64,000 nt of DNA from Dysgonomonas sp. Marseille-P4361 (GTDB taxonomy: Bacteria; Bacteroidota; Bacteroidia; Bacteroidales; Dysgonomonadaceae). Below the pieces are notes generated by a model. The model searched no databases. It saw nothing but the letters and a program-made list of their open reading frames with translations, and was not told where the DNA came from. The DNA lies in the NCBI RefSeq assembly GCF_900343125.1, contig NZ_OPYL01000001.1:372001-436000 (forward strand). The letters run 5' to 3'. Shown here piece after piece: positions 31,826 to 38,747 of the stretch; position 1 is the stretch's first letter, and every line of letters begins with the position of its first letter. Made by a program: the position numbers and the translations under genes.

Positions 31826-32290
31826 TCATTCTTCATTTTCTAAAAGGCTCCATATTATAGTCACATCCAGTTCTGATTTATGTACATGAAATTTAATATG
31901 GATAGTTTCTTCTGCATTGCCTTTTGTGAATGTATAAGAACCGATGGCTTTCTCATCCAAATACACCCAGTTTGCATTTTCATGACTGATTTCTGAAAGA
32001 CAGGCTTTTGTTATTTTTTCTTCACAGAGAACGGAATCTATTTTAAAACTCCAAAATTCATCATACTCTGAGTCCTTCAAACTAATTCTGCATTCGATAA
32101 AACCATCTCTCAATACAAAGCTGGCATTCTCTACTTGAATTGTCATATCTTCATCACCGATCTGATAGCAGAGTGTATTTACCTTATTGGGAGTATTACT
32201 ATTTTCAAGAATCTCCAGTAGACTCCTTTCTTGCCCCATAGCAGAAGAACTTATTATCATACAGAATATAATTACCAAGAACTTATTCAT
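31826..32290 (-). CDS. Small secreted protein of the radical SAM operon
   Basis: 154 residues with a signal peptide (VIIFCMIISSSAMGQ). The mature part is acidic and beta-rich, with single Cys residues at CYQIGDE, FIECRISL, SVLCEE and ACLSEI. No family recognised. Its ATG overlaps the radical SAM stop codon (ATGA, 32287-32290), so the two are translationally coupled. It may be another partner or target of the enzyme. Note a CY dipeptide (TLCYQIGD) like those of the upstream candidate substrates. Confidence 0.65.
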   Translation of the reverse strand: MNKFLVIIFCMIISSSAMGQERSLLEILENSNTPNKVNTLCYQIGDEDMTIQVENASFVLRDGFIECRISLKDSEYDEFWSFKIDSVLCEEKITKACLSEISHENANWVYLDEKAIGSYTFTKGNAEETIHIKFHVHKSELDVTIIWSLLENEE

Positions 32291-33321
32291 ATCAATTCAT
32301 TGCTGGTTAATATAGGATCAACATGGGCAAGTCCTAACCCGCATTGCTCGGAGGCTGCACGACATCCTCCCCGACAAGTTGTCCATTTCTCACACTCACT
32401 ACAAAAATCAGGGACAATTTCGTTCCACGAATTGGCATAAGAGGAGTATAGAATAGTTGTCAGGTCCTCTTTATAAATATTGCCTGCTACGATAGGAGAA
32501 TGGTTACACAGACGAATATTTCCGTTTATATCCATTGTAATCGGTTTGCGCAATACATCATCAGAGCAATGACCGAACATAATTAGAGGATAGTCTGATG
32601 GATCGATCAGGCAGTCGGGAGAACAGACATTGGAAGAAATAACCAATCCAAGCTCTTTTGCCTTAGTATTAGCTACAGCGAAAGCCGTTTTTAGTTGACC
32701 ATGTGTAGCAGAAACAGAAGCAGGATCAGCTGTTCCGCATCCTCCTATATTGTAACGGTTCATCATAATTCGTCTTAATCCGAGATCGGCAATAAAATCG
32801 AGAGTCTCACTTAATACCTCAACATTGTATTTTGTCAGCACAATAACAGGTACAGGATATCCTTTCATGCTTTGAACGGCACGAATGGAGTTGATCGATT
32901 TCTTCCAGCTGCCTCTTACCTGTGTTATATGATCGTGAATAGCCTCATCAGCAGAATGAATAGGGAATTCGAACAGGGTAACCCCCATTGCAATCATACT
33001 GCTATAATCATCGGCAGTTCCTTTGAAACCATTGCTGATGACAGTGACAGTTTTACCTTCCATCCGACAAAAGAGAGCAATCTCTTTGATCCGTTGAGCA
33101 ACAAAAGGCTCGCCCCCGGTAAGGGTTACATTACGAACATCAGCCTGAAGGAAAAGTTGCCTCAGTGCTTTAATGGCTTTATCATATGAGTCGAATGGCT
33201 GGTGTTCTGCACCCGGTATTTTCCAAACATTGTAACAATAGCGGCAAGCTAGATTGCACTTATCTGTCAGCTCAAAAGCGACATTATATAATTGTAATCT
33301 TTCCTTCTTATTCATTTCCAA
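32287..33321 (-). CDS. Radical SAM/SPASM peptide-modifying enzyme
   Basis: 344 residues, cytoplasmic. The N-terminal radical SAM domain has TDKCNLACRYCYNV, with CxxxCxxC at Cys22, Cys26 and Cys29, and LTGGEPF near residue 70. The C-terminal part is SPASM-like with Cys at 252, 272, 307, 310, 316, 320 and 327 (FCSECEKWTTCRGGCR), which would bind auxiliary Fe-S clusters. SPASM proteins usually modify ribosomally made peptides. Its start overlaps the preceding gene by 14 bp, and the upstream genes encode proteins with repeated Cys-Tyr motifs. It resembles the rSAM/lipoprotein pairs known in Bacteroides (TIGR04133/TIGR04134), from memory. Confidence 0.85.
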   Translation of the reverse strand: MEMNKKERLQLYNVAFELTDKCNLACRYCYNVWKIPGAEHQPFDSYDKAIKALRQLFLQADVRNVTLTGGEPFVAQRIKEIALFCRMEGKTVTVISNGFKGTADDYSSMIAMGVTLFEFPIHSADEAIHDHITQVRGSWKKSINSIRAVQSMKGYPVPVIVLTKYNVEVLSETLDFIADLGLRRIMMNRYNIGGCGTADPASVSATHGQLKTAFAVANTKAKELGLVISSNVCSPDCLIDPSDYPLIMFGHCSDDVLRKPITMDINGNIRLCNHSPIVAGNIYKEDLTTILYSSYANSWNEIVPDFCSECEKWTTCRGGCRAASEQCGLGLAHVDPILTSNELI

Positions 33322-34497
33322 AACTTATGCTAATAATCATTGTCGTTTTCATGGATTTACCATCATGAACTCCCGGTTTCCATGCCGAGGAGGAAGATAA
33401 TACCCGTAAAGCTTCTTTATCTGCTTCTTCTGACAATTTTCCAATTACTTTTTTATCAATTAATTTTCCTTTCTTGTCAATAGCAAAGCTAAGAATAACT
33501 TCTCCTCTAATGCCATCACTTTTCATCTGATCGGTATATCTTACATTCGCTTGTACCCACTTCTGAAAACTTTCAAGATCACCTGCGGGCGAAACGGGAG
33601 GAGTCTGTATTTCGGTATAAGATAGTTTCTTGACCTTTTCGGGTTTACGTCTATAGATATCATCCGTATAATTGTTAACAACAACGACTTCGTAACAAAG
33701 GATTGTATTAGAATCCTCGAGAGAAATAATTCCCTCTCCCCATTAAGTATTGATGCCGAAATCTCTTTCGTTTCCATTCCTAAGAAAGAGAAGACTAGTT
33801 TATCTGAAGATTTGGCCATAATACTAAAAGAACCATCGATGTCTGTTATAACACCATTCGTTGTCCCTTTCACCTTAACAGCTACACCCATGAGAAAGTC
33901 TCCAAATTCATCTCTTACTTTTCCTTTAATCTCTCTTTCATCTGTTTTTATAGGAGAAATAGTTCTCTTTCTCAGCTTGCGTTCTACAACAATATAACAA
34001 GTAAGATTTACAGAGTCTGTCTTTAATGTTACAGTAATTGAATCTTTGACTGACGAGGCTGTAAATTCAGCTGGTTTAAAGCCGAGTAAGGAGACTACAA
34101 TTATGTCTTGTATTCCCGCATTCAAACTGAAATTTCCATCAAGATCTGATACCGTTCCTTCGTTCTTATTTTTTATTTTAATAGAAGACCCTATAACAGG
34201 TTCTCCCTCTTCATCCAATACCTTTCCTTTCACCTCTACTGTATCAGTAGGACTTTTTATCCCCTTTGGAGGTATTGCGGGTTTATAGCAGGTAATAAGT
34301 TCTCTTTCAGGAATAGATGGCGAGATTGAATCTGTAGCAGCTACATTGTTTTTTTGAGCCTGGGCTGATGCACTCACCATTCCCCAAATTAATGTACCTA
34401 GCATTAGCTTATATTTAACAAATATAGGCGCACCATTCGTCTTATCGGAGAGAAAAGAGAATAGTCTGAATAATATGTTGTACGACTTTAGTTTTAT
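33308..34497 (-). pseudogene. Leader-CarboxypepD-CarboxypepD-TonB protein, split by a -1 frameshift
   Basis: Two frames read as one gene. Frame A (ATG 34404, or ATA 34497 in frame) has a signal sequence, then two CarboxypepD_reg-like domains (VEVKGKVLDEEGEPVIGSSI; IKGKVRDEFGDFLMGVAVKV). At a GGGG run (33738-33741) the sense passes to the -1 frame: GIISLEDSNTILCYEVVVVN, then a complete TonB C-terminal domain (GEVILSFAIDKKGKLIDKKV, SSAWKPGVHDGK). Frame A instead runs on to 33541 with low-complexity sequence. One lost G explains this. The end overlaps the radical SAM gene by 14 bp. Programmed slippage cannot be excluded. Confidence 0.75.
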
Positions 34498-34778
34498 TTT
34501 TCTTCTGTTTTTAAGCCTTCCGAAATATCTTCTGTTATCTCATAAAAAGCAGCTAGTGCATCTGAATCATCCTCAATAACAGTTATACTATCGGAGATAA
34601 CAGGATAGTAGCACATAGCATAGGGTGGCTCCTCTTCAGAGGAACAAGCAACACCTGTAAAACCAATAATAATTGTACCTAATAGTAACTTATGTTTCAC
34701 AAAAAAATGAGCACCATTCGTCTTGTCAGAAAGAAAAGAGAAGATTCGGAATAATAGTTTATACAATCGCAGTTTCAT
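34494..34778 (-). CDS. Small lipoprotein, candidate radical SAM substrate
   Basis: 94 residues. An unusual long N-terminus (MKLRLYKLLFRIFSFLSDKT, then NGAHFFVKHK) precedes a hydrophobic stretch and lipobox TGVAC. The short mature part carries AMCYYPVISDS and an acidic tail. The N-terminus is nearly repeated at the start of the next gene, whose ATA overlaps this stop codon. Radical SAM-associated lipoproteins (TIGR04134-type) of Bacteroides have a comparable beginning, from memory. A -7-like box sits about 80 bp upstream. Probably the first gene of the operon that includes the radical SAM enzyme. Confidence 0.7.
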   Translation of the reverse strand: MKLRLYKLLFRIFSFLSDKTNGAHFFVKHKLLLGTIIIGFTGVACSSEEEPPYAMCYYPVISDSITVIEDDSDALAAFYEITEDISEGLKTEEK

Positions 34779-34998: not shown

Positions 34999-37755
34999 TT
35001 AATAGTATCTGTATTTTATAAGGTCTGCATAGTCAGTATCTGCATTAATCTCATCAAAAGCATTATCTATATTTTCTTGTATTTCTTGTATTTCAGAATA
35101 CTCGGCAGAAACCAACTTTTGTTTTGTAGCATCCCATTTGTAGTATGAATACCAATCAGAGCCATCTTTTGCACAAACAGGATCCCATTTCTGTGTTTCT
35201 TTATTCCACACCGAACTAAGAAAAACATTAACTTCTCCTTTTTTCTTTTTTATTTTAATAGCTTCAGTACGATAAGCCTTCTCTAAAGACTGTATATCTG
35301 CATTGTACTTATAGATTTCAGAGGTTGCATCTCTTTCTTTACCCTTAACATAGGAATGATCTATTTTGATACTTGGTATCCATCTTTTCTCTCTATCGTT
35401 CCAAAGGCTCTGTTCTAACTCCATTTCTCTGGATCCATTTTTGCCGCTGACAAGTTTTGAAACAACCATTCGATCAAGATCCCAGTTATGTGTATCCTCA
35501 TTATATAGTTCGTAGATATTAGTTATCTGAGATCTGTCATAGTCCCTCAATTCGAATACCGAAATAGTATCTTTCCATGCGCTGATATCATAGTCCCAAA
35601 CTCTATGTATAAAGCGCTTGTCGTTATCATTTAAAGAGATAGTAGTCGTATTTTCTCTCCCTCCTAAGCAATTACAATCTTCGTCCCAACTCGCATATTC
35701 ATAATACGATGTATTTCCCTCTATTTGGTTAATATGACGTCTAGTCATATACCAGTCTCCTTTATTTTTGTCCCATTTCCACCTTAATTCAGAGTCGCCC
35801 GTGTTTCCTATTTTCCTTTCTATTTTTTCAACAAACACCCACTCATCACCTACCCACTCGGAATAGAACTCTTTCGATTCAGTATGATAGCCATCCTGAT
35901 CCAAATCTTTTTTCTCAGATTCTTCCTTCTCTTCAAACTGCCATTTCTTTTGTTCTGGCAACCACTTATAATAAACTCTGCGAATCTTTTCCCCTTCGCG
36001 ATTATAGGCAGTAGAATCGCAGCTAGAACCTATCCAGTCAGCTATCCTTTCCCCCCAACTATATTCTTCTCTATACGTCCTATTGTTAGCTTCATCGTAA
36101 GAATATTTTGCCCGAAAAGAATTTACCCATTTCTCCCCATCCCATTTTTTTTTCAGGAGGCCAATTATATTTTCGTTATTATCGTACTTCTGCTCTACCC
36201 ATTTCTCTCCAATCCAAGTATCTCCCTTAGATGAGTTTCCGCTTGGAGACCAATAATATGAATCATAAGAGTCATATTCATACCTCTCTTCGTGAGTCAG
36301 GAGTCCTTTCTCGTTATATTCGTATATTTCTTTAGAATCATTCTTCCACTTTTTGGTTTCATTATCGAAGCGGGCAACTTCTTCATATACAGTATGCCCA
36401 TTATTGTCTTTTCTTACAATTGTTTTTTTGTATGGCACTAGTTCCCTTACGACCACATCTTCATCAGTATAGTCAGACACATAGTTGTACTCGGTTTTTT
36501 CGATACTCCCATCCTCTTTGTAATTAAAGGTCACTTTCTCATAGTCGTCTAACTCTCCTTCATCATATTTCTTTATTTCTACGAGAGAAAGGCGTTCATC
36601 ATCTAGCTTACATAACTTTAATCCCCCTACTTTCCGAATTTCATCGTCTTCTTTGAGATATACTTCAACTTCTTGACAATTATCTACTTGCTTAAGGGTA
36701 TATTTCATATAGTTGAATTTATCCCCCAGTTGCTTCATCATTTGTGTATTAAGACCCATAGAGCCAAACATCTCCATAAAGCGGTCGGTCACATTCTGCT
36801 CGTGAAGCACACTTAACCGTCCCTTGTCATCATATGAGTATTGAGCATCCAGAAGAAGATCGTCATCTATGGTCACCTGCTTCCGGGTTATTCTGCCTTT
36901 ATCATCTGATGCTATCCGAAATCGGGTAACATCTGTTCTTTCTTTATAGCCTCCCCAATAATCTTCATCTTCGTCACGATACAAATATGTACCACGTTGT
37001 ACATATTCGATTTCATTCTTTTTATAGTTGACATCGAAGGAGTAGATTTCTTTCCACTCAGAAAACAGCTTTTCTTCATTATCATAAGACTGTCTATAGC
37101 TTTTTGCTCCTTTTATTCGCCCAGACCTATCATAATCGTAAATGACTTTCTGTTTTAGAATATCTTCATGTATAGAGACAGAGTCAAGAGAATTATAGGA
37201 ACTGTAACTATAAATTGAAACTTGGAGTACTGAGTCTATTTTAGCGTTTTTTCTATTGTAATAACGAACAGTATAAGATCCTTTACCTTCATCTCTAGAA
37301 AATGCGCTATACATCGATGCTGTATTGTTATCTATCCTTACTGTATCTGTATTTGTTACAGGATCGTATGATATATTTTTTTCGAGCATAACAGTAATAG
37401 ATCCTAAACCTAAACCCTTTTTGGGAACAAGAACCTCTCTGACAAGTCTTTCATCTTTATATTCATAGTCTGTAATGAACATTTCTTCCCATTCATAGTC
37501 ATACTGACCAAATACAGACATGGTTTTTCGTATAGGCTGCCCTTTTGCGTTACGCTCATAATCAACCTTTAACAGACCAGCCATTGCGTAAAAATCTATT
37601 GTTCCATCAGCATTGTAATGAGGTTCGAGCATAAGTAGCTCTGGATCAAAGCTACTCTGATCGTCAGCAAAAGAATTATAAAAATCATTACTTTGGGCAC
37701 CTAGATAGGTACTCAAACATATTCCAATAAATATAAGTAAAAGTATTCTCCTCAT
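34999..37755 (-). CDS. Large secreted YD-like repeat protein
   Basis: 918 residues with a signal peptide (LIFIGICLSTYLGAQ). The body is made of irregular repeats of the form W..YEYN..G...EER..Y and KYSYDEANNRTYREEY, similar in feel to YD/RHS repeats, with many Trp pairs such as EKWVEQKYDNN and GEKWVNSF. Very acidic and tyrosine-rich. No protease, toxin or C-terminal secretion signal was recognised; it ends DLIKYRYY. It follows the TonB-like gene after 14 bp, so both are probably cotranscribed. Function unknown; a surface or periplasmic scaffold is possible. Confidence 0.75.
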   Translation of the reverse strand: MRRILLLIFIGICLSTYLGAQSNDFYNSFADDQSSFDPELLMLEPHYNADGTIDFYAMAGLLKVDYERNAKGQPIRKTMSVFGQYDYEWEEMFITDYEYKDERLVREVLVPKKGLGLGSITVMLEKNISYDPVTNTDTVRIDNNTASMYSAFSRDEGKGSYTVRYYNRKNAKIDSVLQVSIYSYSSYNSLDSVSIHEDILKQKVIYDYDRSGRIKGAKSYRQSYDNEEKLFSEWKEIYSFDVNYKKNEIEYVQRGTYLYRDEDEDYWGGYKERTDVTRFRIASDDKGRITRKQVTIDDDLLLDAQYSYDDKGRLSVLHEQNVTDRFMEMFGSMGLNTQMMKQLGDKFNYMKYTLKQVDNCQEVEVYLKEDDEIRKVGGLKLCKLDDERLSLVEIKKYDEGELDDYEKVTFNYKEDGSIEKTEYNYVSDYTDEDVVVRELVPYKKTIVRKDNNGHTVYEEVARFDNETKKWKNDSKEIYEYNEKGLLTHEERYEYDSYDSYYWSPSGNSSKGDTWIGEKWVEQKYDNNENIIGLLKKKWDGEKWVNSFRAKYSYDEANNRTYREEYSWGERIADWIGSSCDSTAYNREGEKIRRVYYKWLPEQKKWQFEEKEESEKKDLDQDGYHTESKEFYSEWVGDEWVFVEKIERKIGNTGDSELRWKWDKNKGDWYMTRRHINQIEGNTSYYEYASWDEDCNCLGGRENTTTISLNDNDKRFIHRVWDYDISAWKDTISVFELRDYDRSQITNIYELYNEDTHNWDLDRMVVSKLVSGKNGSREMELEQSLWNDREKRWIPSIKIDHSYVKGKERDATSEIYKYNADIQSLEKAYRTEAIKIKKKKGEVNVFLSSVWNKETQKWDPVCAKDGSDWYSYYKWDATKQKLVSAEYSEIQEIQENIDNAFDEINADTDYADLIKYRYY

Positions 37756-37769
37756 TGATTTAGAGCATA

Positions 37770-38747
37770 TTAGTCCAGTTTAAAAATAAAAGGAAGCGTA
37801 AAATATACAGGGACTTCTTTTCCATTCTGTTTTCCCGGTTTCCACTTAGGCATTGCCTTTACAACACGAACTGCTTCTTTATCGCACTCAGGGTCAATAC
37901 CTCTTACAACTTTAACATTTGATAGATTCCCATCCTTCTGCACTACAAATCGGACAACAACTCGCCCCTGTATTCCAGCTCCGCTAGCGGCTGTAGGATA
38001 AACAAGGTTACGATGTATGAATTTGGACATTTCTGCTTCACCTCCTACAAAATGAGGCATTTGCTCTACAATTTCAAATGGTTTTTCATCAGGAGAGTCC
38101 TCTACAATCACTTTATAATCTTCCAGTTCAGCTATATCTATCCCATATTCTTCCCCATCGTACTCCTCTGATTCTATATCTTTTATTGCAACTTGAATTT
38201 TTACCCGTCCTTCGTCTAAGTCAGCAATGCTTATGCTCTCCACTTCTTCCGTTTCTTCAACCTCGACCTCTGTAATTATAAAAGGACTTAACTCATGTCC
38301 TTCTTCGCTCTCAACTCCTTTTACATCTGATGATAAATCGACTACACTCATTTGTAAAGAGCTCTGATCTGACTCCCTTTCTCTCTTAGACATAAAAGGA
38401 ATACGAAGACCTGTTCGCATATTTACCGGTTTTCCGTCAATGCTTCCCGGCACCCATTTTGGCATAGCTGCAACTATAGACAGGGCAATACTATCAAGAG
38501 TAGGATCAAGACTTATCCCAATAAGAGGCTCTTGTATTTGTCCCATAGAGTCAACCTCTATAAAGACAGCTACGACTCCTTGGCTTTCTAAATCATCCGG
38601 AAGTGATCTTTTACTGAGTTCTTTATTCAGGTACTTTTGTAAAGCCTCTTTCCCATTGGGGAACTCAGGCGATACTATTTTCTGTTGTGCATTAACTACT
38701 ATTACAGCAAAAACTACTATAACAGAGAAAAATATTCTCTTTAGCAT
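37770..38747 (-). CDS. TonB-like protein with two TonB C-terminal domains
   Basis: 325 residues. A cleavable-looking signal (VIVVFAVIVVNAQ) replaces the usual membrane anchor. Domain 1 (near residues 35-110) ends AMPKWVPGSIDGKPVNMRTG; domain 2 ends VKAMPKWKPGKQNGKEVPVY; both have the TonB_C pattern. Between them is a long acidic linker rich in Glu and Asp (EVEVEETEEVESISIADLDE). No ExbB/ExbD contact segment was seen, so it may not energise transport in the usual way. It is upstream of the repeat-protein gene and divergent from the Crp/Fnr regulator. Confidence 0.82.
   Translation of the reverse strand: MLKRIFFSVIVVFAVIVVNAQQKIVSPEFPNGKEALQKYLNKELSKRSLPDDLESQGVVAVFIEVDSMGQIQEPLIGISLDPTLDSIALSIVAAMPKWVPGSIDGKPVNMRTGLRIPFMSKRERESDQSSLQMSVVDLSSDVKGVESEEGHELSPFIITEVEVEETEEVESISIADLDEGRVKIQVAIKDIESEEYDGEEYGIDIAELEDYKVIVEDSPDEKPFEIVEQMPHFVGGEAEMSKFIHRNLVYPTAASGAGIQGRVVVRFVVQKDGNLSNVKVVRGIDPECDKEAVRVVKAMPKWKPGKQNGKEVPVYFTLPFIFKLD

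What the first reader, a model, noticed from the sequence alone, without database searches (positions are those of the whole stretch)
31826..34778. Compact radical SAM operon with two leader-sharing candidate substrate proteins
The sequence shows four minus-strand genes packed end to end: a small lipoprotein, a CarboxypepD/TonB fusion, a radical SAM/SPASM enzyme and a small secreted protein. Junctions overlap by 3, 14 and 4 bp. From known families, SPASM enzymes usually modify peptides encoded beside them, and Bacteroides has lipoprotein/radical SAM pairs. It is inferred that here the substrates are exported proteins, one of them TonB-domain bearing, which would be an uncommon target. This is the best candidate in the window for an undescribed system.
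Basis: partly seen in the sequence, partly recalled or inferred. Interest (0 to 1): 0.85.

Follow-up and report, generated by a model that had tools for sequence, protein, structure and literature searches.

The report
Radical enzyme with exported Cys-Tyr partners
A Dysgonomonas bacterium carries a small gene set in which one iron-sulfur enzyme sits beside exported envelope proteins that share a leader and a cysteine-tyrosine pair; relatives in other bacteria keep this pairing, which points to an undescribed protein modification made before export.

Summary
The finding is real, with corrections. In Dysgonomonas a radical SAM/SPASM enzyme (32287-33315, minus) follows two exported proteins with similar leaders. 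It is not TIGR04133: 64 bits against a cut-off of 425, and it falls in another clade. The downstream 154-aa gene is not conserved, and the CarboxypepD/TonB gene is broken in this genome. Comparison showed more: all 21 rSAM loci with upstream sequence (window, 7 other Dysgonomonas, 12 other members of the order, 1 of the phylum) have 1-5 leader-bearing ORFs directly upstream. Tails vary, yet 41 of 41 collected proteins carry a Cys-Tyr pair: 65 CY among 118 post-leader Cys, 28 others lipobox-like. Controls: 28 CY of 580 Cys in other ORFs of these loci; 0 of 21 in the genome's other TonB_C frames. Leader searches found 16 readable unlinked substrates, all with CY, eight in one array. Best reading: a stand-alone rSAM modifies CY sites of Sec-exported (lipo)proteins before export. 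The chemistry is unknown and no modification has been shown.

The parts
34494..34778 (-). Substrate candidate 1: 94-aa leader-bearing lipoprotein-like protein with one CY site and a short acidic tail
   Evidence: ORF; leader alignment; CY count
33541..34497 (-). Substrate candidate 2, first frame: leader and two CarboxypepD_reg-like domains, two CY sites; broken gene (no standard start directly before the leader)
   Evidence: CarbopepD_reg_2 101.7 bits; frames read apart; intact relatives
33308..33739 (-). Substrate candidate 2, second frame: CY site (ILCYEVVVV) and TonB_C domain
   Evidence: TonB_C 39.7 bits over its cut-off of 24.6; CY in this frame
34608..34613 (-). CY site of candidate 1
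   Evidence: translation
34285..34290 (-). CY site 1 of candidate 2 (LITCYKP)
33994..33999 (-). CY site 2 of candidate 2 (NLTCYIV)
33692..33697 (-). CY site 3 of candidate 2, in the second frame
32287..33315 (-). Radical SAM/SPASM enzyme, 342 aa from the ATG at 33315 (344 aa from the TTG at 33321)
   Evidence: Radical_SAM 73.6 bits; conserved Cys set
31826..32290 (-). 154-aa secreted-type ORF overlapping the enzyme by 4 bases; probably not part of the system
   Evidence: no family match; no counterpart in other loci

Best explanation
A two-part protein-modification system. A stand-alone radical SAM/SPASM enzyme acts in the cytoplasm on precursors that carry a long leader (an N-terminal amphipathic or hydrophobic segment, then a basic stretch with a conserved Gly that runs into a Sec or lipoprotein signal peptide). 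It modifies one or more Cys-Tyr sites, most often [IV][TSLM]CY, that lie behind the lipobox or beside CarboxypepD, TonB_C or unassigned tail domains. The precursor is then exported by Sec and the leader goes with the signal peptide, so no dedicated protease or transporter is needed. One enzyme can serve several substrates, beside it or elsewhere in the genome. SHOWN: gene pairing, leader, CY site, its link to this enzyme clade, and no other gene conserved around it. INFERRED: that CY is the modified site and that modification precedes export. GUESSED: the chemistry; first choice is an oxidative link or ring that involves the Cys sulfur and the Tyr or its backbone. The likely role is structural or metal/redox related in the envelope rather than a released bacteriocin.
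For: 21 of 21 loci with upstream sequence have leader-bearing ORFs directly upstream; 41 of 41 collected have CY, 65 CY among 118 post-leader Cys with 28 of the others lipobox-like. Controls: 28 CY of 580 Cys in 152 other ORFs there, and 14 of 232 in 57 exported-like ones; 0 of 21 Cys in other TonB_C frames of this genome; 0 of 6 Cys in 3 partners of the sister rSAM clade. 16 of 16 readable unlinked leader proteins have CY, including an eight-ORF array with no rSAM-type ORF flagged in 18 kb. Co-occurrence: 8 of 25 Dysgonomonas have both, 15 neither; 11 of 12 leader genomes in the order sample have the enzyme. No other conserved neighbour apart from one dispersed 3-locus cluster. Enzyme clade 100/100.
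Against: No modification is shown. 25 of 118 post-leader Cys are neither CY nor lipobox-like. The leader profile was built from 7 of the 12 genomes it found. Substrates were collected with a leader regex that dropped frames under 80 aa and those over 400 aa without CY. G014 has an enzyme fragment without a leader protein and G020 broken leader remnants without the enzyme. No leader-binding domain was identified. Structure models are weak, and the profile resembles metabolic enzymes such as PqqE and NirJ about as well as peptide maturases.
Confidence: 0.77

Rival explanations
1. The enzyme alters a single residue at the site (Cys oxidised as in anaerobic sulfatase maturation, or Tyr cut or decarboxylated as in spliceases and mycofactocin) and the other residue serves only for recognition.
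For: SPASM enzymes do such Tyr chemistry (mycofactocin, spliceotide: PMC8326336, passages). Both Cys and Tyr are fixed in the motif, which cannot tell the two apart.
Against: The recalled sulfatase motif CxPxR and splicease motif XYG do not fit the collected CY contexts, where position +2 after Cys is mostly D, E or K.
Confidence: 0.3
2. The enzyme acts on another part of these proteins (leader, lipobox Cys, tail), and CY is kept for another reason such as disulfide pairing or metal binding.
For: No modification is shown. Leader and CY are both conserved, so CY as the target is an inference.
Against: CY is present with otherwise different tails and is absent from the three partners of the sister rSAM clade that have a similar leader design. 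A single CY per protein in 24 of 41 makes intramolecular disulfides unlikely as the general reason.
Confidence: 0.15
3. A metabolic radical SAM enzyme that lies beside exported proteins by chance.
For: Weak similarity to NirJ, AhbD, MoaA and viperin at about the level of the maturases.
Against: 21 of 21 loci keep the partners directly upstream although the other neighbours differ, and genome co-occurrence is strong.
Confidence: 0.03
4. A divergent member of the TIGR04133/TIGR04134 rSAM/lipoprotein system.
For: Same plan: SPASM enzyme after exported lipoproteins with a leader; the TIGR04134-type site also has a fixed Tyr ([CEMA]YGxP in 13 of 17 YGxP sites).
Against: 64 bits against a cut-off of 425; separate clades; different leader and motif; 7 genomes hold both enzymes at different places.
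Confidence: 0.03

Closest known systems
TIGR04133 / TIGR04134 (rSAM_w_lipo / lipo_with_rSAM), function unknown
   Same: SPASM enzyme beside exported lipoproteins with a shared leader, CarboxypepD-like tail in the partner; Bacteroidales
   Different: Enzyme scores 64 of 425 bits and lies in another clade; leader and site differ: CY instead of xYGxP
GeoRSP system radical SAM/SPASM protein (TIGR04303)
   Same: Best NCBIfam score of the window enzyme (83 bits); matched by 19 of 19 members
   Different: Cut-off is 400 bits. A 207-bit relative, G427, sits beside a second rSAM gene and has no CY partner
PqqE
   Same: Profile match over nearly the whole length including the SPASM part (3.4e-15); an Asp ligand to auxiliary cluster II is known there (PMC5715301, passages)
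   Different: 69 bits against a cut-off of 381; no PqqA or PqqD beside it was found among the conserved neighbours
SkfB and other sactipeptide/ranthipeptide maturases
   Same: Nearest solved structure by sequence (5.5e-20, radical SAM half) and by a weak model; Cys-centred targets
   Different: No cut-off reached; the window enzyme starts almost directly with the radical SAM core; one Cys per site, beside a fixed Tyr
MNIO-modified bufferins
   Same: Precursors with Sec or lipoprotein signal peptides, modified before export; [quoted passage not shown]
   Different: Enzyme family is unrelated (MNIO, with an RRE-type partner protein); no conserved partner gene here

Membership tests
TIGR04133 (rSAM_w_lipo) | Score at or above the curated cut-off of 425 bits | tested here: not met
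   64.3 bits; all 19 aligned members match only weakly, best E 2.2e-18
TIGR04133 (rSAM_w_lipo) | Groups with TIGR04133 enzymes in a tree | tested here: not met
   19 family rows 100/100 and 17 TIGR04133 rows 97/98 are separate clades; the tool warns of long branches elsewhere in the tree
TIGR04134 (lipo_with_rSAM) | Score at or above 39.8 bits and the xYGxP site | tested here: not met
   Candidate 2 scores 23.9 bits, matching residues 52-87 of the CarboxypepD part, candidate 1 none; no match over cut-off in this genome; site is CY
GeoRSP rSAM (TIGR04303) | Score at or above 400 bits | tested here: not met
   83 bits
PqqE (TIGR02109) | Score at or above 381 bits | tested here: not met
   69 bits
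Anaerobic sulfatase-maturing enzyme | Substrate motif CxPxR (recalled) | tested here: not met
   CY contexts do not show it
Radical SAM/SPASM superfamily | CxxxCxxC and the SPASM cysteines | tested here: met
   C19/C23/C26, C249-x14-G-x4-C269 and C304xxC307x5C313x3C317 invariant in 19; the last usual Cys (C324) is not conserved, C230/C234 are extra and D332 is invariant. Pfam SPASM is just under threshold (18.5 of 21.5)
RiPP-type modification system | Enzyme-dependent change of the partner protein | not testable with these tools
   Needs mass spectrometry

The most novel reading that the evidence does not exclude
A class of exported proteins and lipopeptides of the Bacteroidota in which a lone radical SAM enzyme turns Cys-Tyr pairs into a new cross-link or cofactor before Sec export, and serves both operon partners and scattered arrays of short lipopeptides. 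In the CarboxypepD/TonB_C substrates the CYEVVVV strand sits where SusC-type receptors carry their TonB box (recalled), so the modification may tune TonB-type strand pairing in the envelope.
Probability: 0.4. Interest if true: 0.9.

Novelty: new variant of a known kind. Interest (0 to 1): 0.74.

Why it matters
Radical SAM maturases are known mostly from small peptides. Here one is tied to Sec-exported lipoproteins and domain proteins of the cell envelope, some with TonB C-terminal domains, with a short countable target motif that makes the chemistry testable on a 94-aa substrate. If confirmed it would add a protein modification to the envelope of Bacteroidales and give a second kind of precursor, next to the MNIO-bufferins, that is modified before Sec export.

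Tried and rejected
Considered and rejected: membership in TIGR04133/TIGR04134 or another NCBIfam rSAM model (the 25 best models are shown there for the window enzyme, all far below cut-off); the 154-aa downstream gene as a component; plasmid carriage (no tblastn match at 1e-30 in 72,556 plasmid records). The motifs CxPxR and XYG (both recalled) do not fit the CY contexts.

Little gain: structure of the rSAM from 4 sequences (pLDDT 60.6), whose PDB matches mix maturases with viperins; structure of a D. hofstadii substrate from 3 sequences (pLDDT 52.5, both CY sites in segments under 50), not interpretable. Promoter scan: 19 sites against 12.6 +/- 3.5 in shuffles, 2 terminator-like sites against 2.4, not used. 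Ten paper searches gave listings in which I saw no description of this system; TIGR04133 and TIGR04134 are named in 0 papers. Of PMC10352776, PMC5715301, PMC8326336, PMC8939145 and PMC12452194 I saw passages only; PMC10352776 has no occurrence of Dysgonomonas, lipoprotein or TonB. One paper on rSAM families, looked up by DOI, is not held. Subscription papers and preprints are not in the library, so absence from print is not proven.

Counting choices: substrates were collected by a leader regex with a start codon; frames under 80 aa, and those over 400 aa without CY, were dropped. L112's three were added by hand. The G551 substrate and a second L103 substrate, both with CY, are outside the 41. 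L107 (enzyme at a contig end), L115 and L021 (enzyme fragments) were left out. Pfam and NCBIfam scans of substrates from other genomes used 7 of these 43. Of unlinked leader hits, G132:C169 (stops in frame), G146 (E 7e-4, partial) and a second partial hit in G169 could not be read as proteins; the G132 three-ORF array was listed with a filter for CY, the G245 array with a filter for Cys only. Of the two broken G020 remnants one has CY and one stops before the site. The TIGR04134-type control was picked by a YGxP regex.
Full report
WHAT IS THERE. The window lies in a Dysgonomonas genome: in the family-wide search only same-genus genomes matched, and the named relatives are Dysgonomonas sp. Marseille-P4677, D. 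hofstadii DSM 104969 and Dysgonomonas sp. 25. On the minus strand, from 34778 down to 31826, lie a 94-aa lipoprotein-like ORF, a leader/CarboxypepD frame, a TonB_C frame, a radical SAM enzyme and a 154-aa secreted-type ORF. The first two share a leader, 52% identical over the aligned piece. The second gene is broken in this genome: no standard start codon directly before the leader, and CarboxypepD and TonB_C parts in different frames. Intact copies exist in relatives.

THE ENZYME. Pfam gives Radical_SAM (73.6 bits) and SPASM just under threshold (18.5 of 21.5). Over 19 aligned members the three radical SAM cysteines and C234, C249, C269, C304, C307, C313 and C317 are invariant, C230 is in 18, the usual last SPASM cysteine is not conserved, and D332 is invariant. 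PqqE is a precedent for an Asp ligand to auxiliary cluster II, at another position (PMC5715301, passages); that D332 is a ligand here is a guess. No NCBIfam model shown reaches its cut-off: GeoRSP 83 of 400, PqqE 69 of 381, TIGR04133 64 of 425 bits. In the PDB, SkfB (5.5e-20) and PqqE (3.4e-15, nearly full length) come first by profile. A low-confidence model has SkfB, PqqE, viperin, SuiB and TigE as nearest folds.

DISTRIBUTION. The enzyme is in 9 of 101 genomes of the family, all Dysgonomonas, one of them a fragment with a stop at a contig end; 25 Dysgonomonas genomes were in reach. Of 295 genomes sampled from the order, 18 matched at 1e-40: 15 belong to this family (this genome and one 180-bit fragment included) and 3 to a sister clade at 144-160 bits. 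Of 395 sampled from the phylum 3 matched: this genome, G551 (411 bits) and G427 (207 bits); G427 sits beside a second rSAM gene and has no CY partner. In a tree of 49 proteins the 19 enzymes form one clade (100/100), apart from 17 TIGR04133 enzymes (97/98) and from the sister clade; the tool warns of long branches among the outgroups and TIGR04133.

THE PARTNERS. I looked upstream of 22 enzyme genes; one (L107) is cut by a contig end. The other 21 have 1-5 leader-bearing ORFs directly upstream in the same direction. Twenty loci gave 41 collected proteins, G551 one more, and L103 a second one missed by the regex. Leaders differ between genera but run through a basic stretch and a conserved Gly into a signal-like segment, with a lipobox-like Cys in 28 of 41. 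Tails are short and acidic, CarboxypepD_reg, TonB_C, or without a Pfam match (7 of the 43 scanned).

THE CY SITE. All 41 have a Cys-Tyr pair: 24 have one, 11 two, 5 three, 1 four. Of 118 Cys after the leader 65 are CY, 28 lipobox-like, 25 other; Tyr makes up 4.0% of the tails. The commonest context is [IV][TSLM]CY[DE][VP]. The sequences are related, so the binomial 6e-70 is not a true probability; the fair statement is 21 of 21 loci. Controls: 28 CY of 580 Cys in 152 other ORFs of these loci (26 of these ORFs have one; at least one is a missed substrate), and 14 of 232 in 57 exported-like ones; 0 of 21 Cys in 11 other TonB_C frames of this genome, two of them the same protein; 4 of 43 Cys in 15 TIGR04134-type proteins; 0 of 6 Cys in 3 partners of the sister clade.

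UNLINKED SUBSTRATES. Leader profiles found such proteins on other contigs than the enzyme: one each in G023 and G011, one each in G125, G169 and G228, three in G132 and eight end-to-end ORFs in G245. All 16 have CY. In the 18 kb around the G245 array no rSAM-type ORF was flagged. These contigs are draft, so physical distance is not proven in every case. This suggests that one enzyme acts in trans on many small lipopeptides.

CO-OCCURRENCE. In 25 Dysgonomonas genomes 8 have both, 1 only an enzyme fragment (G014), 1 only broken leader remnants (G020, 55% complete), 15 neither (Fisher P 7e-5). In the order sample of 295, 11 of 12 genomes with the second leader type have the enzyme; the four enzyme genomes without it (G000, G163, G293, G317) carry other leader types (Fisher P 5e-16). 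The profile was built from 7 of those 12 plus G551. Of the 5 independent hits, G125, G169 (fragment), G194 and G228 have the enzyme, and G146 (E 7e-4, partial) does not.

NO OTHER PART. All-against-all comparison of neighbours finds in 3 or more loci only the enzyme (21 loci), two groups that hold the substrates (12 and 8 loci; the first also takes in a few unrelated CarboxypepD or TonB_C proteins), and one dispersed 3-locus cluster. The simplest scheme is that the enzyme itself reads the leader, modifies in the cytoplasm, and Sec export follows with removal of the leader. These steps are inference.

CHEMISTRY. SPASM enzymes make thioethers, C-C and C-O links and Tyr-derived products (PMC8326336, passages). 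A fixed Cys beside a fixed Tyr suggests a Cys-Tyr or Cys-backbone link; single-residue changes are not excluded. In CarboxypepD substrates one site reads ILCYEVVVV, close to where SusC-type receptors, whose N-terminal domain the CarboxypepD part matches (138.8 bits), carry their TonB box (recalled); this is a lead only.

NOVELTY. The plan resembles TIGR04133/34, but enzyme, leader and motif differ. MNIO-bufferins share the idea of Sec-exported modified precursors, which that paper calls highly unusual (PMC12452194, passages). I rate it a new variant of a known kind. Ten paper searches showed no description, in an open-access library only.

Noticed in passing
L116, L118, L119 (G361, G269, G228): A sister rSAM clade has upstream partners of 531, 527 and 330 aa with a similar hydrophobic-basic-lipobox leader but no CY: possibly a second undescribed pair.
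   Followed up: partly
L193:6850-9317 (G245, contig 13): Eight short leader-bearing ORFs with CY packed end to end, with no rSAM-type ORF flagged nearby.
   Followed up: yes
L147 (G551): The rSAM frame carries an extra stretch of roughly 40 aa after the radical SAM cysteines that looks like a small in-frame insertion.
   Followed up: no
L068, L076 (G020): Broken leader remnants; L076 lies between gcvT-like and pepT-like genes, which also flank the intact operon of G023 (gene names recalled).
   Followed up: partly
L040-L056: TIGR04134-type partners carry [CEMA]YGxP sites (13 of 17 YGxP sites in 15 proteins), which recalls the XYG splicease motif.
   Followed up: no
window 34999-38747: Upstream on the same strand lie a 918-aa secreted-type protein with only a sub-threshold RHS-repeat match and a 325-aa TonB_C protein without leader or CY.
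   Followed up: no
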